This document shows positions 16,379 to 39,734 of a stretch of DNA of 64,000 bases, piece after piece; position 1 is the stretch's first letter, and every line of letters begins with the position of its first letter. The position numbers were made by a program, and so were the translations under genes. The notes beneath the pieces were generated by a model. It was not told the origin of the DNA and did no database searches. It was given only the letters and a program-made list of their open reading frames with translations. The DNA is taken from positions 295,685 through 359,684 of the forward strand of contig JAMWDI010000001.1 in NCBI GenBank assembly GCA_023819375.1, written 5' to 3'. This stretch comes from Candidatus Omnitrophota bacterium. GTDB lineage: Bacteria; Ratteibacteria; UBA8468; B48-G9; JAFGKM01.

Positions 16379-17245
16379 ATGGAATTTAAAAATCCATTTA
16401 CTAAAGCAGGATTTTGGTTTAAAGGCAATATTCATACTCATACAAAAAATTCAGATGGTCGTTTATCTCCTGAAGAAATTGTGAGAATGTATAAGGAAAA
16501 CAAATATGATTTTTTATTTCTTACAGACCATAATAAAATAACTGAATGTAAAATTTCATTTAAAGACTTTATTGTTATTGAAGGAGTAGAATTTAATAAA
16601 AACAATTTCCATATACTTGGCCTTAATTTAAACAAAATTTTCAGCATAGAAAATTTAACCCTTCAAGAAATCATTAATAAAATAAATTCTTCTGGTGGTT
16701 TTACAGTTATATGTCATCCATACTGGTCAGCAATTAAAAGTCAGGAAATATTAAATCTTTCCAATTTTTTAGGAATTGAAATTTATAATAATACTTGTGA
16801 ACAATCAAAAGGGAAAGGATATTCACTTGTCCACTGGGATGAAATTTTACAAGAAAATAGAAAAATCTGGGGTTTTGCAGTTGATGATACCCATTTTCTC
16901 TCTGGTGAAAATCAAGAAAATGATATTTTTGGTGGATTTATTATGGTAAAAGCCCCTTTATTAAATAAAAAAGAGATTTGTAACTCCATAAAAGAAGGAT
17001 TTTTTTATTCTTCAACAGGTGTATTTATAGAAAACTTAGAAATTGCAAATAATAAAATTAAGATTCAATTTTCTCCATCTGTTTTAGTTGACTTTATTGG
17101 ATATGGAGCAACTGGTGTTAGATTTTCAAAGAAAGAAGAAATTACTTATGCTGAATATGAAATAAAAGGCAATGAAAAATATATAAGAATTGAAATAACT
17201 GACAAAAACAATAAAAAAGCATGGACAAATCCTATTTTTTTATAA
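16379..17245 (+). CDS. PHP-domain metal-dependent phosphoesterase-like protein
   Basis: A PHP-family hydrolase of 288 residues without signal peptide. Metal ligands appear in order: NIHTHTKNSDG (HxH), FLFLTDHNKIT (DH), GVEFNKNNFHILG (E, H), VICHPYW (H) and GFAVDDTHF (DxH). A small C-terminal beta domain follows from about residue 215. An AAGGA site precedes the ATG and the gap to the preceding gene is 11 nt. A lipoprotein-like paralogue with the same motifs lies at 25885-26883. The substrate is unknown; the stand-alone family hydrolyses phosphoesters. Confidence 0.8.
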   Translation: MEFKNPFTKAGFWFKGNIHTHTKNSDGRLSPEEIVRMYKENKYDFLFLTDHNKITECKISFKDFIVIEGVEFNKNNFHILGLNLNKIFSIENLTLQEIINKINSSGGFTVICHPYWSAIKSQEILNLSNFLGIEIYNNTCEQSKGKGYSLVHWDEILQENRKIWGFAVDDTHFLSGENQENDIFGGFIMVKAPLLNKKEICNSIKEGFFYSSTGVFIENLEIANNKIKIQFSPSVLVDFIGYGATGVRFSKKEEITYAEYEIKGNEKYIRIEITDKNNKKAWTNPIFL

Positions 17246-17260: not shown

Positions 17261-18256
17261 ATGATTAAGATAGGCTTTATAGGATGTGGGAATATATCTT
17301 ACAGACATTTAAATCATTTGAAAGAAATAAAAGATGTAAAAATTGTTTCTGCTATTGAACCAGATGAAGAAAATTTTAAAAAATTTCAGGAAAGTTATGG
17401 AGATAAAATAAAAAAATATGAAAATGAAGAAGAAATGATAGAAAAAGAAAAACTTGATGGTGTTGTTATATGTTCTCCCCATACATTTCATTTCAACCAA
17501 ATAAAGATTGCTCTTGAAAATGGTTGTGATGTTCTTGTTGAAAAACCTGCTGTTGTAAGTTATAAAGAAAGTATTGAAATAAGAAAGATTATGGAAAAAA
17601 CTGGAAAAAAAATTGTTGTTGCCTACCAGAGACATTATATGCCTGTTTTCAATGAAGCAAAAAATATAATAAAAGAAAAATTTGGGAAGGTTATTTTTCT
17701 TTCAGGATTTCTTTCTCAATACTGGCTTGAGTTATTTAGAACTAAAGATGGAAAAAGAGCGTGGAGACTATTGCCAGAATATTCTGGGAAAGGACAACTT
17801 ACAGATTCAGGAAGCCATTTTGTTGCTTCTATATTTTTCCTGACAGGACTGACACCTGAAAAAGTTGCTTCCTTTCTTGATTTCAGAGGTGAAAGAGTTG
17901 ATATAAATTCTGCCTTTATTGTAAAATTTAAGGAAGAGGCAATTGGAAACTTTGGAATTCTTGGATATGACCCTTTTTGGAGAGAAAATCTATTAATATG
18001 GGATGAATATAATAATCTTATAAGTGTTTCTCTTTCTGAGGAATCTTATGTTCATTTTAAAGGAGAAAAGGAAAGAAAGAAGATAGAAGGAATAGAAATA
18101 GAAGTTAAAAATCCAAGTGATGATTTTGTAAAATGTATAAAAGGGGAAAGAAACCCTCACACAGATTGGGGAATAATAGAAAAAGTTTGTCTTTTAAGTG
18201 ATATGGTTTACAAATCATTTTTTGAGGAAAGAATAGTTAAAAATGGAGAGATTTGA
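17261..18256 (+). CDS. Gfo/Idh/MocA-family oxidoreductase
   Basis: An NAD(P)-dependent sugar or inositol dehydrogenase-like protein of 331 residues. The Rossmann loop IGFIGCGNISYRHL opens the protein, CSPHTFHF marks the second nucleotide contact, and DVLVEKPAV is the family EKP motif with the catalytic-site Lys. The downstream half is the usual mixed beta-sheet substrate domain (GQLTDSGSHFV). AAAGGAGGG precedes the ATG. It closes a four-gene plus-strand cluster and probably acts on the same sugar as the HxlB-like isomerase; the substrate cannot be read. Confidence 0.85.
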   Translation: MIKIGFIGCGNISYRHLNHLKEIKDVKIVSAIEPDEENFKKFQESYGDKIKKYENEEEMIEKEKLDGVVICSPHTFHFNQIKIALENGCDVLVEKPAVVSYKESIEIRKIMEKTGKKIVVAYQRHYMPVFNEAKNIIKEKFGKVIFLSGFLSQYWLELFRTKDGKRAWRLLPEYSGKGQLTDSGSHFVASIFFLTGLTPEKVASFLDFRGERVDINSAFIVKFKEEAIGNFGILGYDPFWRENLLIWDEYNNLISVSLSEESYVHFKGEKERKKIEGIEIEVKNPSDDFVKCIKGERNPHTDWGIIEKVCLLSDMVYKSFFEERIVKNGEI

Positions 18257-18263
18257 ATTTTTA

Positions 18264-18287
18264 TGTTAAAATGAATTTTTTAAGGAG
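18264..18287 (+). promoter_or_regulatory. Extended -10 and ribosome-binding site before etfB
   Basis: TGTTAAAAT (18264-18272, extended -10) is followed by AAGGAG (18282-18287) and the etfB ATG at 18296. The -35 is weak. This 39-nt gap is the only clear break before the Etf-ATPase block, so an independent start here is plausible. Confidence 0.42.
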
Positions 18288-18295
18288 AAAATAAA

Positions 18296-19081
18296 ATGAA
18301 AATAATTGTATGTATTAAACAAGTTCCTGAAGGATTAGATGTAAAGGTAGATCCTGAAACAAAAAGAATTGTAAGAGAAGGAGTTAAAAGTATTATTAAT
18401 CCCTATGATCTTTACGCTATTGAAGAAGGAATAAGATTGAAAGAAAGATTTGGAGGAGAAACTTGGGTAATTTCTATGGGGCCCCTACAAGCAGAAAGTG
18501 CAATAAGGGAAGCAATTGGGATGGGTATTGATTATGGAGTTCTTTTAAGTGACAAAAAATTTGCAGGTAGTGATACTCTTGCAACTTCATATACTCTTTC
18601 TCTTGGAATTAAAAAAATAGGAAATTTTGATATTATAATATGTGGGAGAGAAACATTGGATGGAAGTACAGGGCAGGTTGGTCCAGGTATTGCAGAACAT
18701 CTTGGAATTCCTTATATATCTTATGTGAGCAAAATTATTGATATTAAGGATGGAATAATTGAATGTAAAAGATTGATGGAAGACCACTATGAAATTGTAA
18801 AAACTAAAATTCCTGTTTTAATTACTGTAATAAAGGAAATTAATGAACCAAGAATACCTTCCTTAAAGAATATGCTAAGGGCTAAAAAAATTGATATTCC
18901 TATTTGGAATGCTGAATCTCTTCAAGGAAATGAAACGTTTTTCGGACAAGATGGTTCTCCAACTCGTGTTATAGATGTATGGACACATACTATTAAAAAA
19001 GAGGGAAGAAAAATTGAAGGAGATCCTGAAAAACTTGCTGATGAAATAATTTCTGAACTAAAAAAAATAGGAGTGGTTTAG
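18296..19081 (+). CDS. etfB: Electron transfer flavoprotein, beta subunit
   Basis: Forms with EtfA a flavin- and nucleotide-binding electron carrier. The start MKIIVCIKQVPEG, the AIREAIGMGIDYGVLLSD segment, DIIICGRETLDGSTGQVGP and the adenine-loop region VLITVIKEINEPRIPS are typical. At 261 residues it is full length. The downstream etfA starts on the next base. The ETLDGSTGQ wording is the usual EtfB signature; whether this pair bifurcates electrons cannot be told by eye. Confidence 0.93.
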   Translation: MKIIVCIKQVPEGLDVKVDPETKRIVREGVKSIINPYDLYAIEEGIRLKERFGGETWVISMGPLQAESAIREAIGMGIDYGVLLSDKKFAGSDTLATSYTLSLGIKKIGNFDIIICGRETLDGSTGQVGPGIAEHLGIPYISYVSKIIDIKDGIIECKRLMEDHYEIVKTKIPVLITVIKEINEPRIPSLKNMLRAKKIDIPIWNAESLQGNETFFGQDGSPTRVIDVWTHTIKKEGRKIEGDPEKLADEIISELKKIGVV

Positions 19082-20266
19082 ATGAAAATAAAAATAATTT
19101 ATGAAAATTGTGATTTATGTAAATTATGTATAGAAAATTGTCCTTTTGGGGCAATTGTGATAAAAGGAAATAAAATAGAAATAAATGAAAATTGCTCTTT
19201 ATGTGGATTATGTATTAAAGTCTGCCCCAAAAATGTTTTAATTAAAGAAGAAGAAAAGGAAGAAAAAAGGGATTTGAGCGAATATAAAGGGATATGGTTT
19301 TTTGCTGAAACAAAAGAAGGAAATATTGCTTCTGTTTCTTATGAAATGCTTTCTGCTTCAAAAAAATTGAAAAAGAAATTAAATCAGGAAATATGTGCTG
19401 TTCTTTTTGGCAAAAATATAAAGGAAAAAGCAGAAGAATTAATAAAAAGAGGAACTGAAAAGGTTTATGTTATTGACGATGAAATATTTTGTAATTTTTC
19501 AGAAGAGGTATATTCTACTGCCCTTGCCTATTTGATAAAAAAATATAAGCCAAACATACTTATCGCAGGTGCTACAATGATTGGAAGAAGTTTCATCCCA
19601 TCTGTTGCTGTAAAAGTAAAAACAGGACTTACTGCAGATTGTACAGATGTTGATATAGATGATGAAACTGGTCTTTTAGTCCAAACAAGACCCACTTTTG
19701 GTGGAAACTTGATGGCAAAAATTATATGTGAAAAACATAGGCCACAGATGGCCACTATAAGACCTAAAATTTTCAATATCGCAGAAGAAGAAAATAATAT
19801 AAATGGTGAAATAATAGAAGAAAAAATTGAATTTGAAATAGACAAAAGAATTGAAATATGTGGAAGAGAAAGAATTGAAAATGTTGTTGATCTTCAAGAA
19901 GCAGAAATAATTGTTTCAGGAGGGAGAGGATTAAAAGAAGGGAAAAATTTTGAAATTATAAGGGAACTGGCTGAATTACTCGGTGGTGCAGTCGGTGCTT
20001 CCCGTGCTGCTGTAGATTCTGGTTGGATTGGATATCCCCATCAAGTTGGTCAAACAGGAAAAACAGTAAAACCAAAAGTTTATATTGCGTGTGGGATATC
20101 AGGAGCAATTCAACACCTTGCTGGGATGCAGACATCCGATTATATAATTGCTATTAATAAGGATCCAGAGGCTCCTATTTTTAAAGTAGCAAATCTTGGA
20201 GTTGTTGGAGACTTATTTGAAATTTTACCTGTTTTAATTAAAAAATTGAAAGAAATTAGGAGGTAA
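19082..20266 (+). CDS. etfA: Electron transfer flavoprotein, alpha subunit with N-terminal ferredoxin domain
   Basis: Residues 1-55 carry two 4Fe-4S motifs, CDLCKLCIENCPFGAI and CSLCGLCIKVCPKNVL, fused to a standard EtfA. The FAD domain shows ILIAGATMIGRSF, TGLTADCTD, the SGGRGLKEGKNF loop, VGASRAAVDSGW, VGQTGKTVKPKVYIACGISG and a closing AINKDPEAPIF. Ferredoxin-fused EtfA is known from anaerobes where Etf links to iron-sulfur redox partners. It is followed after 2 nt by an ATPase subunit gene, so this redox carrier and the rotary ATPase are likely co-transcribed. Confidence 0.93.
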   Translation: MKIKIIYENCDLCKLCIENCPFGAIVIKGNKIEINENCSLCGLCIKVCPKNVLIKEEEKEEKRDLSEYKGIWFFAETKEGNIASVSYEMLSASKKLKKKLNQEICAVLFGKNIKEKAEELIKRGTEKVYVIDDEIFCNFSEEVYSTALAYLIKKYKPNILIAGATMIGRSFIPSVAVKVKTGLTADCTDVDIDDETGLLVQTRPTFGGNLMAKIICEKHRPQMATIRPKIFNIAEEENNINGEIIEEKIEFEIDKRIEICGRERIENVVDLQEAEIIVSGGRGLKEGKNFEIIRELAELLGGAVGASRAAVDSGWIGYPHQVGQTGKTVKPKVYIACGISGAIQHLAGMQTSDYIIAINKDPEAPIFKVANLGVVGDLFEILPVLIKKLKEIRR

Positions 20267-20268
20267 AA

Positions 20269-20742
20269 ATGGAAATTGGACTTATTTATTCATTACTAGG
20301 TGCAGCAATAGCAATTTTTTTCTGTGGAGCAGGTTCAAGTATAGGAATAGGTTATGTTGGTAAAGAAGCCAATGGAGTTTTATCAGAAGAACCAGAAAAA
20401 TTTGGAACAATGCTTTTACTTGTTGCTCTACCCGGAACTCAGGGAATTTATGGATTTTTAACAGGATTCCTTGTTATGATGAAAATTGGTATTTTGGGAG
20501 GACAGATACCTTCAATTTCACCATCTCAGGGACTTGAAATATTGATTGCCTGTTTACCAATAGCAATATCTGGTTTAGTTTCAGCAATCCATCAAGGAAA
20601 AGTTTGTGCTTCTGGAATTTCTGTTGCCTCAAAACATCCAGAAGCAAGTATGAGAGCTCTTGTATATGGCGCCCTTGTAGAAACATATGCAGTGTTAGGT
20701 CTTGTTGCTTCAATATTTTTACTTATGGGAGTTAAGATATAA
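20269..20742 (+). CDS. ntpK: V/A-type ATPase membrane rotor subunit K (proteolipid)
   Basis: A double-hairpin proteolipid of 157 residues with four hydrophobic helices. Two related glycine-rich hairpins are seen (IAIFFCGAGSSIGIGYVGKE and the ISGLVSAIHQGKVCASGISV half), and LVETYAVLGLVASIFLL carries the conserved ion-binding Glu in helix four. The matching position in the first hairpin reads LLVALPGTQGIYG with no acidic residue, so one carboxylate per subunit is expected. GGAGGTAAAA precedes the ATG. It overlaps subunit E by one base (TAATG). Confidence 0.92.
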   Translation: MEIGLIYSLLGAAIAIFFCGAGSSIGIGYVGKEANGVLSEEPEKFGTMLLLVALPGTQGIYGFLTGFLVMMKIGILGGQIPSISPSQGLEILIACLPIAISGLVSAIHQGKVCASGISVASKHPEASMRALVYGALVETYAVLGLVASIFLLMGVKI

Positions 20743-21299
20743 TGGTGGAAAAACTTATTAAAAAACTGATTGAAGAAAGTAAATTGAAAGCAGAAAAAAT
20801 TATTGAAGAAGGTAAAAAAGAATATGAAAAAAAATTAAAAGAAGAAAAAGAAAAAGTATTGTTTGAAATTGAAAAAGAATTAAAAAGAGAGAAGGAAAAA
20901 ATAGATAAAGAAATTGAAAAAGAAATTGTAATTTTTAATCTGGAAAAAGAAAAAGAAATCCTTGAATTAAAGAATGAACTTATTAAAAAAATTGAGGAAA
21001 AAATTGAAGAAAAATTCAATGAATTTTTAAATGAAAATATGGAAAAAATTATAAAAAATATCATTGAAAATTCAAATGAAAAAAATTTAGAAATTTTTGT
21101 GCCTTTAGGGAAAAAAATAATGATAGATTTACCAGTAGAAAATGACAAAAATTTAAAAAATTCTTTCAGAATAAAAAGTACTAACTGGGAAATAGAATTT
21201 TCTTGGGCAACTGTAAAAAATATTTTTGAGAGTAAAATTAAAGAATTGGCAAATAAGTTAATTTTCCATGAGGAAAAATTTACTAATAAGAAAACTTAA
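20742..21299 (+). CDS. ntpE: V/A-type ATPase peripheral stalk subunit E
   Basis: 185 residues, strongly charged and Lys/Glu-rich. Residues 1 to about 110 form an almost unbroken coiled coil (KAEKIIEEGKKEYEKKLKEE), then a small alpha/beta head. This matches subunit E, the outer stalk that holds the A3B3 head. Sequence identity in this family is always low; the call depends on the fold pattern and the position between K and C. Its 3' end overlaps the uracil-DNA glycosylase start by 32 nt. Confidence 0.8.
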   Translation: MVEKLIKKLIEESKLKAEKIIEEGKKEYEKKLKEEKEKVLFEIEKELKREKEKIDKEIEKEIVIFNLEKEKEILELKNELIKKIEEKIEEKFNEFLNENMEKIIKNIIENSNEKNLEIFVPLGKKIMIDLPVENDKNLKNSFRIKSTNWEIEFSWATVKNIFESKIKELANKLIFHEEKFTNKKT

Positions 21300-21852
21300 A
21301 GAAGAAGTAGAAAATTGTCATAATTGCAACCTACATAAAGGAAGGAAAAATGTTGTTTTTGGCTCAGGAAATATTTATTCAAAAATATTGTTCATTGGAG
21401 AAGCACCTGGAAAAAATGAAGATGAAAAAGGAATTCCATTCTGTGGAAAAGCAGGAAAGATTCTGGACAATCTTTTGGATTTAATAAATTTGAAAAGGGA
21501 AAATATATTTATAACAAATGTTGTAAAATGTAGGCCTCCTAAAAACAGAAAACCAAAAGAAGAAGAAATAGAAAAATGCAAAAAGTACCTTGAAAAACAA
21601 ATTGAAATAATAAATCCCAAGATAATATGCTGTCTTGGAGAGATTGCTTTAAAATTTATTTTTGAAAAATTTAAAATAAAGAAAAAAGCCAAGATAAATG
21701 AAATTCATGGGAAGGTTATAGATGTTAGTGAAAAGAAAATTATCCCATTATTTCATCCTGCTTATGCGGTTTATAATCCTAAAAAATTTGAAATTATGAA
21801 AAAAGACTTTATTAATTTGAAGGATTTGCTATGTTTGATATTTATTTTTTGA
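21268..21852 (+). CDS. Family-4 uracil-DNA glycosylase
   Basis: Removes uracil from DNA. The first two cluster cysteines are in NCHNCNLHKGR, motif A is FIGEAPGKNEDEKGIPFCGK, and later VVKCRPPKNRKPKEEE and CKKYLEKQ give the remaining cysteine region. PLFHPAYAVYNP is the C-terminal HPA motif. The iron-sulfur cysteine pattern separates type 4 from types 1-3. It is embedded between ATPase subunits E and C with overlaps of 32 and 22 nt, so it is translated from the ATPase message. That position is unusual for a DNA repair enzyme. Confidence 0.9.
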   Translation: MRKNLLIRKLKEEVENCHNCNLHKGRKNVVFGSGNIYSKILFIGEAPGKNEDEKGIPFCGKAGKILDNLLDLINLKRENIFITNVVKCRPPKNRKPKEEEIEKCKKYLEKQIEIINPKIICCLGEIALKFIFEKFKIKKKAKINEIHGKVIDVSEKKIIPLFHPAYAVYNPKKFEIMKKDFINLKDLLCLIFIF

Positions 21853-22751
21853 GTGGAAAAATTTCTTCACTTGAAAAAAAATTTATTGATTATGAGAAAT
21901 TAAAAAAATTAATTGAAAGTAAAACAATTGAAGAATTTCTGGATTTACTTGAAGGTACATTTTTTAAAATTCCAAAATCTATTTCACATCCAGATGAAAT
22001 AATAAACTATTTTGAAGAAGAAAGAAAAAAATTGATTGAGGAAATTGATAATCTATTTGAAGAATATTTGAAAATATTTTTTCTTTTAAAATATGACTAT
22101 TTTAATCTTGCCTGTCTAATTGAAAACAGAGAATTTTTTTCTCACTATGGAACAGTTAATTTTTACATATTAAAGGAAGCGATAGAAAAAAGAGATTTTT
22201 CAAAGATACCATCATATCTCATAAATGCTTTTGAAGTTTTAAAACTAAAAAAAGAAATTGGAGAAAAACTTCTATTGTTAAAAATTGATTATTATAAAAA
22301 TTTTTATAAAATTTCAGAAAATATCTCCCCTTTAATTAGAGATTATGCGAAAATTGAAATTGATTTTGCAAATATTTATACATATTTTAATAAAAAAATC
22401 TCTGGTGAAGCGGTCAAAATTGAGGACTTAATTGAAAATGGAAATATTAAAAAAGAGTTCTTTCTTGAAGAAAGTAATCTTTTTAAAAATTTAACTTCTA
22501 TTTACAAAAAAATCTCTCTACCATTAAGTGAAGAAAATATTGAAATAGAAAAACACAAAATTATTGTTGACTTTATTAAAATTGGCAGAATTAAACCTGA
22601 TTCAATAGAGAAAATATTATTCTTTTACATTGCAAGAGAAATTGAAATTGAGAATGTTCAACGATTATGCCTTTCTAAATTTTATAAACTTGATTATGAA
22701 ATTTTGAAAAAAATATCAATAATACCTTACCAGTACAAATGGAAAGTTTAA
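21831..22751 (+). CDS. ntpC: V/A-type ATPase subunit C
   Basis: Subunit C (the d/AC39-like cap of the rotor) is a 300-odd residue helical protein built from three similar helical bundles. This protein is 306 residues, almost all helical, and opens with YFLSGKISSLEKKFIDYEKL and TIEEFLDLLEGTFF, the family's repeated pattern. NLACLIENREF and ENVQRLCLSKFYKL follow the same logic. Similarity is modest, so order beside K and E is part of the evidence. Subunits I, B and D are absent from the window. Confidence 0.78.
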   Translation: MFDIYFLSGKISSLEKKFIDYEKLKKLIESKTIEEFLDLLEGTFFKIPKSISHPDEIINYFEEERKKLIEEIDNLFEEYLKIFFLLKYDYFNLACLIENREFFSHYGTVNFYILKEAIEKRDFSKIPSYLINAFEVLKLKKEIGEKLLLLKIDYYKNFYKISENISPLIRDYAKIEIDFANIYTYFNKKISGEAVKIEDLIENGNIKKEFFLEESNLFKNLTSIYKKISLPLSEENIEIEKHKIIVDFIKIGRIKPDSIEKILFFYIAREIEIENVQRLCLSKFYKLDYEILKKISIIPYQYKWKV

Positions 22752-22874
22752 AATGAAAACCAATGAAAATTGTAATAAAAGCACAAACCGCTTAGACAAA
22801 TTTGTATTTTACATCCCAAATTGATAAACTCATTTATAGAATATAGAGAGGAATTTTATAAAAAGGGGGGCAAA

Positions 22875-24038
22875 ATGAAAAATATATTATTTGATCTGTG
22901 TAAGATAAAAAAAGCAAAAACAAAAAGAATATCAAGTTATGATATTGAAGGGAGAAATAAAGATTACTGGATAATAGAACCAGAAGAAACAAAATTGATT
23001 GCTGAAATAGAAGGACCTGGATGTATAACTCATATATGGATGACACAGTCTGGTTCTCCTTTTATGTATAGAGAAGTAATTTTAAAATTTTATTGGGATG
23101 ACGAAGAAAATCCAAGTATACTTGTTCCTCTTGGTGATTTTTTCTGTCTTGGCCATTCTCTCGTCAACTCTTTCTGTTCTCTACCCTTTTCAGCCTCAAC
23201 TTCTACTCCTTATAAATTTGGTGGTCTGTGTGCTTTAAACTGTTATTTACCTATGCCTTTTAGAAAAAAAGCAAGAATTGAAATTAAAAATGAAGGAAAA
23301 GAACTTTACAAACAATACTTTTATATTGACTATGAAATTTATGAAGATGATTTAGAAGAAAATGTAGCATATTTACATTCTTGCTGGAGAAGAGAAAACC
23401 CAACTCCTGGCTGGGGTCCTGAAATTCCTGTAAACTCATCAGAATCAGATATAGTTAACAAAGAAGAAATTGCATACAAAAATAATTATGAAATTCTCTA
23501 TGCAGAAGGTATTGGTCATTATATTGGATGCAATATTTCAGTAACAAATTTTCATGGAACATGGTGGGGAGAAGGAGATGACATGATATGGGTTGATGGA
23601 TATAAATGGCCCCCTGATTTACATGGTACAGGAAGTGAAGATTATTTCAACCAGGCCTATGGAATGCAAAATAATGCCTTTTTATTTAATGGTTCTTCTA
23701 TATTTGAAGGTTTTTCTATTTTTGGAAACAACCTCTATGATGGCAATTTTCGGGGTGGATATCAAACATCCTATGTTTTTCATATTACAAATCCAATCCA
23801 TTTTAAAAAATCAATAAAGGTAACAATTGAAGCAGGTCATGGAAATCACACACAAAATGATTACTCTTCAACTGCTTATTGGTATCAATTAGAACCACAT
23901 ATAAAATTTGATATTTTGCCAGTTGAAAAGAGATACCCTGTCTTACTTTCTTTTATAAATCCAGATTCATTAAAAACAGAAAAAAGAAAATTGATTATAA
24001 CCTCTGAAATGGAAGAAATGAAAAGAAAGAAAAAATGA
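22875..24038 (+). CDS. GH172 (DUF2961) family glycoside hydrolase-like protein
   Basis: DUF2961 proteins form a beta-jelly-roll family of carbohydrate enzymes (difructose-anhydride and arabinofuranosidase activities are known). Visible landmarks are GPGCITHIWMT near the N-terminus, PLGDFFCLGHS, the LHGTGSEDYFNQAYG motif with the acidic residues of the family, and FHITNPIHFKKS. I start at the ATG at 22875, 387 residues, because GGGGGG lies 4 nt before it; the longer frame has no such site. No signal peptide, so it probably acts in the cytoplasm. It overlaps the next gene by 4 nt. Confidence 0.85.
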   Translation: MKNILFDLCKIKKAKTKRISSYDIEGRNKDYWIIEPEETKLIAEIEGPGCITHIWMTQSGSPFMYREVILKFYWDDEENPSILVPLGDFFCLGHSLVNSFCSLPFSASTSTPYKFGGLCALNCYLPMPFRKKARIEIKNEGKELYKQYFYIDYEIYEDDLEENVAYLHSCWRRENPTPGWGPEIPVNSSESDIVNKEEIAYKNNYEILYAEGIGHYIGCNISVTNFHGTWWGEGDDMIWVDGYKWPPDLHGTGSEDYFNQAYGMQNNAFLFNGSSIFEGFSIFGNNLYDGNFRGGYQTSYVFHITNPIHFKKSIKVTIEAGHGNHTQNDYSSTAYWYQLEPHIKFDILPVEKRYPVLLSFINPDSLKTEKRKLIITSEMEEMKRKKK

Positions 24039-25884: not shown

Positions 25885-26883
25885 TTATTGTAAAGAGTTT
25901 CTTGTCCTTTTTATTCCAAATGGATTTAAATAAATAAAACCCTTTTTACCAAAAATTTCAACTCTTAAATATTTTTCTATTTTAGGATTTTCTTTATAAT
26001 TTAATTTATTCCCCTCCCCTATTATTTTTCCATTTGAAATCCATTTTATTTTCTTATAATTCTTTGCTAATATCTTAATTTCTCCTTTTGTTTCATCAAC
26101 AATTATTTTTTCTAAATAAGGCATATCATACCCAAAAATTGCTGAACATATATAAAATCTACCTTCTTTCATCGCTTCTTTTATTTCATTTTCATCCAAT
26201 TCATTAAGTAAAAATATATTCCAGTTTACAGAAAGGTGGGTTATTTTATGAAAATCATCATTTCCAAACCCCCAGACAGGTCTTTCTGGCATCGTCCTTG
26301 AAAGAATTTCATCCCAAATATCAGTATCTCCATAAACTTTATCCTTTTGAGCAGATGTATTTAAAACTTCTACACCTATAAGATTTTTATATTTTTTAAA
26401 AAAATTCACATACCAATCTATTTCCTTATTATATCTTCCAGGATGGGCAAAAATAGAAATCCCCTCTTTTTGAGATATAAGATTTAAAATTTCATTTTCA
26501 TCTAAGTTTTCTATATTTTCAGAAATAACAAATGAAAAATATCCAAGGATATGATGTTGATTTTTACCAAATTCAATACCTTTTATCAAAAAAATATCTT
26601 TTTCATTTTCAGGATATGTTAGTTTGTTATGGTCTGTAATTGAAAGAATTGAATAGCCCTTCTTTTTATATAAAAAGATAACCCTTTCAATCGGTTCCTT
26701 TCCATCACTTTCCTTTGTATGTGTGTGAAGATTTGTCTTATATCTATTTACTTTTTCCCAGTTTACATTCTTATATGGATTTGTAAGAAGAATATTTTCA
26801 GAAGGGACATATTTGATTTCTGCACAATTATTGAAAAATAAAAAAATCAGAATCAATATGTAATATTTTTTCATAAGTTTCAT
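25885..26883 (-). CDS. Membrane-anchored PHP-domain protein
   Basis: A paralogue of the cytoplasmic PHP protein at 16379-17245, with the same motif series: NLHTHTKESDG, SITDHNKLT, GIEFGKNQHHILG, IFAHPGRY and GFGNDDFHK. I take the ATG at 26883, giving a hydrophobic start KKYYILILIFLFFNNCAEI; the Cys after it may be lipidated, but NNC is not a canonical lipobox. A longer start at 26940 would place 19 basic residues before the signal, which seems unlikely. Probably a periplasmic phosphoesterase or sugar phosphatase; substrate unknown. Confidence 0.75.
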   Translation of the reverse strand: MKLMKKYYILILIFLFFNNCAEIKYVPSENILLTNPYKNVNWEKVNRYKTNLHTHTKESDGKEPIERVIFLYKKKGYSILSITDHNKLTYPENEKDIFLIKGIEFGKNQHHILGYFSFVISENIENLDENEILNLISQKEGISIFAHPGRYNKEIDWYVNFFKKYKNLIGVEVLNTSAQKDKVYGDTDIWDEILSRTMPERPVWGFGNDDFHKITHLSVNWNIFLLNELDENEIKEAMKEGRFYICSAIFGYDMPYLEKIIVDETKGEIKILAKNYKKIKWISNGKIIGEGNKLNYKENPKIEKYLRVEIFGKKGFIYLNPFGIKRTRNSLQ

Positions 26884-27142
26884 AATTTTATACTTTTTAA
26901 ATTTTAAAGGCAATTTTAATTTTTGCTTCAAATTTGGCAATAATTCCAGATATAAAACAAAAGATTTACTTGAAAATTAGAAAATTGAAGTTGTTATGAT
27001 TTATTCAAAAAGGGTATAAGAAAACTAAAAATATGGAAATTGAAGAAAAATTGACATTACAGAACAATATCTCCTTTCACATTTAAAAGCACTTATAAAT
27101 ATAACAAAATTGCTTAATAACAGTGAAGAACTTATTTTAAAA

Positions 27143-37702: not shown

Positions 37703-39436
37703 TTAAAATAAGTTCAAGATTTTCTCATGTAATTTCAGAAATTCTTCATAATTTTTTTCTGGTATATATCTCATTCTCGCAATTTCTTCTCTTACAGGAT
37801 TTTTCAATATCTCTTCAAGTGTTTTCCCCTTTTCAAGAGCACTTGATGAAACTCTATAAAATAAAATTATTGTTTTTAACATATAATATTGCTTCTTCAA
37901 TGTTGTATATGCATCCATTTCATCAAAAGCACTTTGATGTAAGAAATCTTCTCTTATAGAACGAGCAATTTCAAGAATTAATCTATCCTTTAAAGAAAGA
38001 GTCTCCATACCAACAAGACGAACAATTTCAAGTAGTTCTGCCTCTCTTTCAAGTAATGCCATTGCTTCATTTCTTATTTCCATAAAATCTTCTGCAATAT
38101 TTTCTTTAAGATACTTTTCAATATTTCTTTCATATAAAGAATAACTTGTAAGCCAGTTGATAGCAGGAAAATGTCTCTGATAAGCAAGTCTATCATCAAG
38201 TCCCCAAAAGACTTTAACAACTCTTAAGGTCATCTGTACAACTGGATCTGTTAAATCTCCACCAGGCGGACTTACAGCACCTAAAAGGGATAAAGAACCA
38301 ATTTTATTCTCTTTACCAAAACATATTACTTTCCCTGCTCTTTCATAAAAAGAAGCAACTCTTGTTCCAAGATATGCAGGATAACCTTCTTCTCCTGGCA
38401 TTTCTTCCATTCTTCCAGAAATTTCTCTTAAAGCCTCAGCCCATCTACTTGTTGAATCAGCCATCAATGCAACTGAATAACCCATATCTCTAAAGTACTC
38501 TCCAATTGTAACTCCTGTATAAATACTTGCTTCTCTTGCAGCAACTGGCATATTTGAAGTATTTGCAATTAAACATGTTCTTTCCATTAAAGGTCTTCCT
38601 GAATTTGGATCCTTCAGTTTTGGAAATTCAATCAAAACATCTGCCATTTCATTACCTCTTTCACCACAACCTATATAAACAACTATTTCACTATCAGCCC
38701 ATTTTGCAATTTGATGAAGAACTACAGTCTTACCTGACCCAAATGGGCCTGGAATACAGGCAGTTCCACCTTTAAGAATTGGAAATAAGGTATCTATTAC
38801 TCTCTGGCCTGTAACAAGAGGAGTATCTGGCTCAAGTTTTTTCTTAAATGGTCTTGGTCTTCTTACAGGCCATTTTTGCATTAAATATAAAGGAATTTCT
38901 CCATTCTCTGTTTTAACTTTCCCTATTTCTTCTTCCACTGTAAAGTTTCCTTCTTTTATTTCTACAATTTGACCTTTAATACCATATGGAACTATAATTT
39001 TATGTTCTATAAGTGGGGTCTCCTGAACAACTCCAATTACATCACCAGTTTCTACGTAATCTCCCTTTTTTACAATAGGTTTAAAATCCCATTTTATACT
39101 TCTGTCAAGTGCTGGAATATCAATTCCTCTTATTATAAAATCACTCTTTTTTTCTATTTGACTTAAAGGCCTCTGAATACCATCAAAAATATTTTTAAGC
39201 AATCCTGGACCAAGTTCTACCATTAAAGGCATTCCAGTCCCAAAAACAGGATCTCCAACTTTAAGTCCTTCTGTCTCTTCATAAACCTGTATTGAAGCAA
39301 TATCTCCCTCAAGTCGTATAATTTCACCTATAAGCCTTTCTTCTCCAACTCTAACAACATCAAACATTTTACTTTTTTTCATCCCCTCTGCTTGAACAAG
39401 TGGTCCTGAAACTTTTACTATTTTTCCTATATCCAT
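37703..39436 (-). CDS. ntpA: V/A-type ATPase catalytic subunit A
   Basis: The catalytic head subunit, 577 residues. The Walker A loop is [17 protein letters not shown] at about residue 225, preceded by the bulge domain typical of A (not B) subunits. [35 protein letters not shown] and [10 protein letters not shown] are family landmarks. It is cut from the K-E-C group at 20-23 kb and lies on the opposite strand. Subunit F is immediately upstream (1 nt gap); B and D, normally next to A, are missing and MarC follows instead. Confidence 0.96.
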
Positions 39437-39437
39437 T

Positions 39438-39734
39438 TTATTCCCTCATTCCTGTTGCTTTTTTAATTAACTCTTTTATAATTTTGGACCCCTTTTTTTC
39501 CTTACTTTTTAAACTTGGAATAACAACCATTTTTTTTAAATTCACATATTTCATAAACTTATTTTCATCAAAAACTTCTTCAGTTATAAAAATACAACCA
39601 ACTTTATCCATGTCAATCTCTTTCAATATTTTTTCAGTTTCTTCAACAGAATTTGAAAAAATTGTCTCAATATTAAAAATGGAAAAAAATTCTATACTTG
39701 TCCTATCCCCTATAAAAATTATTTTTTTCTCCAT
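39438..39734 (-). CDS. ntpF: V/A-type ATPase subunit F
   Basis: A 98-residue protein on the rotor shaft. [15 protein letters not shown] is the N-terminal strand-loop-strand of subunit [12 protein letters not shown] the middle strand, and [27 protein letters not shown] the last strand and helix (read here in two pieces: [13 protein letters not shown] and [13 protein letters not shown]). The short length and position right before subunit A support the call. The tRNA-Pro gene ends 15 nt upstream on the same strand. Confidence 0.82.

What the first reader, a model, noticed from the sequence alone, without database searches (positions are those of the whole stretch)
18296..22751. Electron-transfer flavoprotein, rotary ATPase and uracil-DNA glycosylase in one block
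Seen: etfB, ferredoxin-fused etfA, ntpK, ntpE, a family-4 uracil-DNA glycosylase and ntpC are consecutive with gaps of 0-2 nt or overlaps up to 32 nt. Known: Etf complexes move electrons and may bifurcate them; V/A ATPases couple ion flow to ATP. Inference: redox carrier and ion pump are co-expressed; a DNA repair gene locked between stalk and rotor subunits is unusual and may be conserved.
Basis: partly seen in the sequence, partly recalled or inferred. Interest (0 to 1): 0.58.

Follow-up and report, generated by a model that had tools for sequence, protein, structure and literature searches.

The report
Energy genes with a DNA-repair passenger
In a little-known group of uncultured bacteria, part of a sodium-type ATP-driven rotary motor is encoded in one tight gene block with an electron-carrier pair and an ordinary DNA-repair enzyme, the product of an operon that was cut up and reshuffled and then kept.

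Summary
F-A lies 15 kb away in the window, B-D about 112 kb away, and I on another contig. This four-way split, and the block, recur in family f1 and in f3 of the same order. The etf-K link holds in 14 of 26 genomes of the class that have both genes. UDG4 lies between E and C in 12 of the 16 genomes that have it, and entered once (97/86). Of 28 UDG4 loci outside the class, none has an ATPase gene nearby. Families f2 and f5 and one f1 genome have etf unlinked, and one genus-mate has UDG4 elsewhere, so neither link is obligatory. Best reading: a remodelled operon. UDG4 is an ordinary repair enzyme riding in it. The Etf is of the bifurcating type and K carries the sodium-site residues, so Etf, Rnf and ATPase may serve one ferredoxin/sodium circuit. 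Side find: the genome's single acyl-CoA dehydrogenase, the likely Etf partner, ends the fatty-acid-synthesis operon.

The parts
18296..19081 (+). etfB, electron-transfer flavoprotein beta, bifurcating type by similarity
   Evidence: PF01012 8.7e-41; five best PDB chains LctB 7qh2_B, 5ol2_B, 7koe_A, CarD 6fah_B, 4kpu_B at 199.7-225.2 bits, next 85.2
19082..20266 (+). etfA with N-terminal two-cluster [4Fe-4S] ferredoxin domain (CxxCxxCxxxCP at residues 10 and 38)
   Evidence: PF01012, PF00766, Fer4; CarE 6fah_A full length 5.7e-116, LctC 7qh2_A 5.5e-98; motif positions
20269..20742 (+). ntpK, V-type rotor-ring subunit, two-hairpin (157 aa) form
   Evidence: PF00137 two stretches; NF005124 over cut-off; E. 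hirae NtpK 2bl2 2.2e-33
20742..21299 (+). ntpE, peripheral-stalk subunit
   Evidence: NCBIfam PRK02292 5.9e-5; family alignment
21268..21852 (+). family-4 uracil-DNA glycosylase, the only PF03167 protein found in the genome
   Evidence: TIGR00758 213 bits, cut-off 125.3; 4zbx 2.5e-49; single match in genome
21831..22751 (+). ntpC, V-type subunit C (AC39/d)
   Evidence: PF01992 9.2e-16
   Evidence: PF00006, PF16886, PF22919, PF02874
39438..39734 (-). ntpF, directly before ntpA
   Evidence: home-made HMM 150 bits, the ORF being one of its seeds; relative L054 6821-7111 is PF01990; F-A pair repeated in L066, L068, L069, L071

Best explanation
This is a remodelled V/A-type ATPase operon. In most outside relatives the order is I-K-E-C-F-A-B-D. 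Here I is gone from its place, an etfB-etfA pair stands upstream of K, the operon is broken into K-E-C, F-A, B-D and I, and a UDG4 native to the class was inserted once between E and C in an ancestor of f1 and f3. Mechanism: etfB to ntpC is probably read as one mRNA with translational coupling through the overlaps (inferred). UDG4 does ordinary uracil excision and is carried along because it became translationally coupled to E and C (inferred). Etf is of the ferredoxin-fused bifurcating class (by similarity) and would pass electrons from NADH to an acyl-CoA-dehydrogenase-type enzyme and to ferredoxin. Reduced ferredoxin would drive the genome's Rnf complex, whose ion gradient is shared with an ATPase whose ring carries the sodium-site residues (inferred). 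That would give a reason to keep Etf and ATPase together, though not an obligatory one.
For: Order and spacings. Rest of the ATPase elsewhere: A and F in the window, B-D at C2, I on C3. The same split in relatives: F-A in L066, L068, L069, L071 (4 of 4 fetched) and B-D in L067, L070, L072 (3 of 3 fetched). Six-gene block whole on one contig in 7 genomes. etf-K linked in 11 of 12 f1, 2 of 2 f3 and 1 of 1 f4 genomes that have both. UDG4 between E and C in 10 of 11 f1 and 2 of 2 f3 genomes that have it. The 12 in-operon UDG4s form one clade (97/86) with two stand-alone f4 UDG4s as sister (100/97). I directly upstream of K in 57 of 83 K rows, etf in 14 of 83. L054 shows an intermediate with etf-K-E-C-F-A-B-D still in one run, broken by unrelated genes. 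Rnf genes. Sodium-site residues invariant in 10 of 10 K.
Against: etf and K are unlinked in 1 of 12 f1 (G007), 8 of 8 f2 and 3 of 3 f5 genomes that have both, so co-expression is not needed across the class. UDG4 is off the block in G004 and in f4. No transcript data exist. The peripheral-stalk G/H subunit was not looked for. No ion or electron transfer can be shown from sequence. All relatives are draft assemblies, several under 90% complete.
Confidence: 0.65

Rival explanations
1. Functional coupling: the 4Fe-4S UDG4 works with the Etf/ATPase module, for example as a redox- or energy-sensing repair switch, or is held there for co-regulated repair under energy stress.
For: UDG4 carries four cluster cysteines invariant in 13 of 13 aligned; E and UDG4 overlap in 12 of 12 genomes where both are next to each other on one contig (longest ORFs, so some starts may lie later); kept since the f1/f3 ancestor.
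Against: G004 has E without UDG4 next to it; f4 UDG4s stand alone; 28 of 28 outside UDG4 loci have no ATPase gene within about 1.5 kb; other unrelated genes sit in the f4 operon, so insertions are tolerated.
Confidence: 0.07
2. Pure drift: both the etf and the UDG4 junctions are accidents of a decaying operon, without selection for co-expression of Etf and ATPase.
For: Links are lost in f2, f5 and G007; the ATPase is already in four pieces; the f4 operon holds MNT/HEPN, nitrilase-family, mannitol-dehydrogenase-like and nitroreductase genes.
Against: etf-K adjacency is seen in f1, f3, f4 and in a Desantisbacteria contig (L092) where ACAD-etfB-etfA-K-E are consecutive, so it has lasted or moved as a unit.
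Confidence: 0.27
3. Assembly artefact (chimeric contig).
For: The relatives named are nearly all metagenome assemblies.
Against: Seven genomes carry the same six-gene order on one contig.
Confidence: 0.01

Closest known systems
Enterococcus hirae-type Na+ V-ATPase (NtpK, 2bl2)
   Same: 157-aa two-hairpin K; LPGTQG, QGK and VETYA motifs align with NtpK.
   Different: Genes are in four places instead of one operon; etf and UDG4 genes are interleaved.
Caffeyl-CoA reductase-Etf CarCDE of Acetobacterium (6fah) and the lactate dehydrogenase-Etf complex (7qh2)
   Same: Ferredoxin domain fused to EtfA over full length; EtfB closest to the same group. A single acyl-CoA dehydrogenase, closest to the Bcd-type chains 5ol2_C and 4l1f_A, in the genome.
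   Different: The dehydrogenase gene is not beside etf here but after fabF; it is beside etf in L092.
Family-4 uracil-DNA glycosylases (4zbx, 1ui0, 1vk2)
   Same: Cluster cysteines, GEAPG and HPA motifs, match over most of the length.
   Different: Gene context only.
Canonical bacterial V/A-ATPase operons (I-K-E-C-F-A-B-D)
   Same: K-E-C order kept.
   Different: I replaced upstream of K by etfBA; UDG4 between E and C; F-A and B-D detached.

Membership tests
Family-4 uracil-DNA glycosylase | Score over curated model TIGR00758 | tested here: met
   213 bits, cut-off 125.3
Family-4 uracil-DNA glycosylase | Four [4Fe-4S] cysteines and GEAPG/HPA motifs (roles recalled) | tested here: met
   C17, C20, C88, C104 invariant in 13 of 13; GEAPG at 44, HPA at 163
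Family-4 uracil-DNA glycosylase | Uracil excision activity | not testable with these tools
   needs an assay
V/A-type ATPase | Catalytic A and B, stalk D, F, C, E, membrane I and K encoded in the genome | tested here: met
   E by a weak model, B, D and F by likeness to annotated relatives
V/A-type ATPase | G/H peripheral-stalk partner of E | not tested
   no model was run for it
Na+-coupled V-ATPase | NtpK sodium ligands (recalled as L61, T64, Q65, Q110, E139) | tested here: met
   aligned L54, T57, Q58, Q109, E138 in the window; invariant in 10 of 10 K
Na+-coupled V-ATPase | Sodium transport | not testable with these tools
   needs biochemistry
Bifurcating Etf, CarDE/LctBC type | Closest to structurally solved bifurcating Etfs, with ferredoxin-fused EtfA | tested here: met
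   (that these PDB entries bifurcate is recalled)
NCBIfam equivalogs AcrA (NF042970) and EtfB (NF040731) | Score over the curated cut-off | tested here: not met
   AcrA 335.9 bits, cut-off 600; EtfB 265.3, cut-off 445: not filed as an AcrA or EtfB equivalog
Bifurcating Etf, CarDE/LctBC type | Electron bifurcation | not testable with these tools
   needs biochemistry

The most novel reading that the evidence does not exclude
Energy-conserving fatty-acid synthesis: the genome's only Etf and only acyl-CoA dehydrogenase form a bifurcating enoyl-thioester reductase for fatty-acid elongation. The dehydrogenase gene is the last gene of plsX-fabH-fabD-fabG-acpP-fabF-ACAD. Each enoyl reduction by NADH would reduce ferredoxin, feed Rnf, and so the sodium gradient shared with the ATPase whose genes follow etf.
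Probability: 0.17. Interest if true: 0.75.

Novelty: new variant of a known kind. Interest (0 to 1): 0.42.

Why it matters
It documents a rotary ATPase stably encoded in four separate places with foreign genes set into one of them, with relatives at several stages of the process, so operon break-up of an obligate multi-subunit machine can be followed. If the Etf/ACAD/Rnf/ATPase link is real, it would show how an uncultured anaerobe may save energy during lipid synthesis. The repair gene itself is ordinary.

Tried and rejected
Considered and rejected: chimeric contig (seven genomes agree); UDG4 acquired from outside the class (it groups with f4 UDG4s, 100/97; the 28 outside rows were the top-scoring ones, not a random draw, so a closer outside relative could have been missed). 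A lactate-dehydrogenase-like Etf partner is left open (one FAD-oxidase_C protein, 477 aa, beside the lipid A genes). Led nowhere: RNA fold after ntpC (z -0.17); PDB search with ntpC (only a 0.2 match); paper searches for the pairing (no paper on it seen in the listings) and for a bifurcating enoyl-ACP reductase (none in the listings). Rows dropped: K tree left out L086 and L150 as too short; UDG tree left out G004 fragments L175 and L176 and duplicates L001, L181, L206; alignment A2 holds 13 rows and omits the UDG4s of G004, G026 and G032, and its L037 row was given from base 529, shorter than the longest ORF.
Full report
What is there. Pfam and NCBIfam identify ETF beta, ETF alpha with an N-terminal two-cluster ferredoxin, V-type subunit K, family-4 uracil-DNA glycosylase and subunit C; E is supported weakly by NCBIfam (5.9e-5) and by place and relatives. 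No + strand terminator-like site was found in 17900-23200 (three sites, all on the - strand; 1.8 expected on both strands), and promoter-like sites are 37 against 27.8 (sd 5.5) in shuffles. A + strand promoter-like match at 20217-20246, inside the end of etfA, is a 9-of-12 match like most of the others.

The ATPase is in four pieces. The window lies at G000:C2:295685-359684 of a 1.73 Mb, 13-contig genome. PF00006 finds three proteins: 37703-39436 in the window (subunit A), C2:201500-202159 (in a 520-aa ORF that matches the B-position gene of relatives, followed by D) and C2:173535-174149 (104.7 bits, 431 aa, probably Rho by score and length, not tested). PF01496 finds I on C3, next to argJ. 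F lies before A at 39438-39734.

Comparative survey. One search covered 118 genomes; 35 (G000-G034) belong to the same class. Using (UDG4; ETF alpha; A/B; K) on all 35, and neighbourhoods fetched (annotated): 26 genomes have both etfA and K, and K is directly after etfA in 14 of these: f1 11 of 12 (exception G007), f3 2 of 2, f4 1 of 1, f2 0 of 8, f5 0 of 3. For f2 the etf surroundings were fetched in 7 of the 8 (not G023); there the verdict 'unlinked' rests on different contigs alone. In f1, G002, G006, G014 and G015 gave neither gene. Several links are seen on contigs that end in or just after K (G001, G009, G011, G013), so for them only the etf-K half is on that contig. UDG4 was found in 16 of 35; it lies between E and C in 12: f1 10 of 11 (G004 is the exception), f3 2 of 2, f4 0 of 2, f2 0 of 1. 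The whole six-gene order on one contig is seen in G000, G003, G005, G008, G010, G017 and G019.

Exceptions. G007 has K-E-UDG-C with etfBA on another contig, and a second, canonical V-ATPase; its contamination figure is 6. G004 has etfB-etfA-K-E followed by an unrelated 245-aa ORF, and its UDG4 start lies on another contig, cut by the contig end, divergent from another ORF; whether ntpC follows that UDG4 cannot be seen. In G014, ntpC is not preceded by a readable UDG4 in the 300 bases left on the contig. f3 genomes carry both the split ATPase and a canonical one; f2 has only the canonical one, with K of about 105 aa.

The f4 intermediate. L054 (G030) reads etfB-etfA-K-MNT-HEPN-E-C-nitrilase family-F-A-B-mannitol dehydrogenase family-D-nitroreductase, with no UDG4 found in that genome (83% complete). 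So the etf-K junction probably predates the break-up, and the operon accepts passengers.

Outside the class. The best 80 of 277 relatives of K in the genome collection were fetched. UDG4 is present in 5 of 80, all of this class. In a tree of 83 K rows, 57 have I upstream, 14 etf, 12 neither; the etf label needs 4 changes, and starred branches force only 1 (quick tree, several long branches).

UDG4 history. Of the 30 best loci from a UDG4 search of 386 genomes, 28 lie outside the class and none of these 28 has a V-ATPase or etf gene in its locus of at most about 3.5 kb; the other two are G007 and G026. In the careful tree of 43 UDG4s the 12 in-operon ones form one clade (97/86), joined to the two f4 stand-alone ones (100/97); the f2 copy (G026) falls elsewhere. 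One insertion of a class-native gene is the simplest account. The window protein keeps C17, C20, C88, C104, GEAPG and HPA and is the genome's only PF03167 match: an ordinary, probably active repair enzyme.

Etf and its partner. EtfA matches CarE of the caffeyl-CoA reductase-Etf complex over its full length (5.7e-116) and LctC next; EtfB matches LctB, 5ol2_B, 7koe_A, CarD and 4kpu_B at about 200-225 bits, then drops to 85. That these entries are bifurcating Etfs is recalled. The genome has one ETF alpha and one acyl-CoA dehydrogenase. That dehydrogenase is closest to chains 5ol2_C and 4l1f_A and is 73% identical to the one beside etf in L092. It directly follows fabF in plsX-fabH-fabD-fabG-acpP-fabF-ACAD (acpP read by eye from its sequence), where an enoyl reductase might stand. 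I could not test whether a FabI-type enzyme exists elsewhere in the genome.

Ion circuit. K aligns with E. hirae NtpK (2.2e-33); the residues matching its sodium ligands (recalled) are invariant in 10 of 10 K aligned. The genome has RnfC, D, G and A genes in a row of ORFs. [quoted passage not shown] the passages shown do not mention this gene block.

Literature. Searches were read as listings only, except PMC10066038. None listed a paper on this gene block; the library holds open-licence papers only.

Verdict. Observation confirmed; interpretation partly supported. The arrangement is a conserved variant of a known operon, with a passenger repair gene and a plausible but unproven energetic reason for the etf link.

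Noticed in passing
L210 7166-8344 (G000:C13:86165-87343): The only acyl-CoA dehydrogenase found in the genome directly follows fabF in a plsX-fabH-fabD-fabG-acpP-fabF run, where an enoyl-ACP reductase might be expected.
   Followed up: partly
L092 1128-6192: Candidatus Desantisbacteria contig with rnc-ACAD-etfB-etfA-K-E in a row; its ACAD is 73% identical to the window genome's.
   Followed up: partly
L054 2363-12483 (G030): V-ATPase operon with MNT/HEPN, nitrilase-family, mannitol-dehydrogenase-like and nitroreductase genes between its subunits.
   Followed up: partly
L051, L042 (G017, G007): A second, canonical V-ATPase with K of about 105 aa in genomes that also have the split one.
   Followed up: partly
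L159 9377-10708: LpxC fused to a FabA/FabZ-like domain beside lpxA and lpxD.
   Followed up: no
window 16379-17245: CehA/McbA-type PHP metallohydrolase just upstream of the block; the ORF at 25885-26940 on the - strand looks alike by eye.
   Followed up: no
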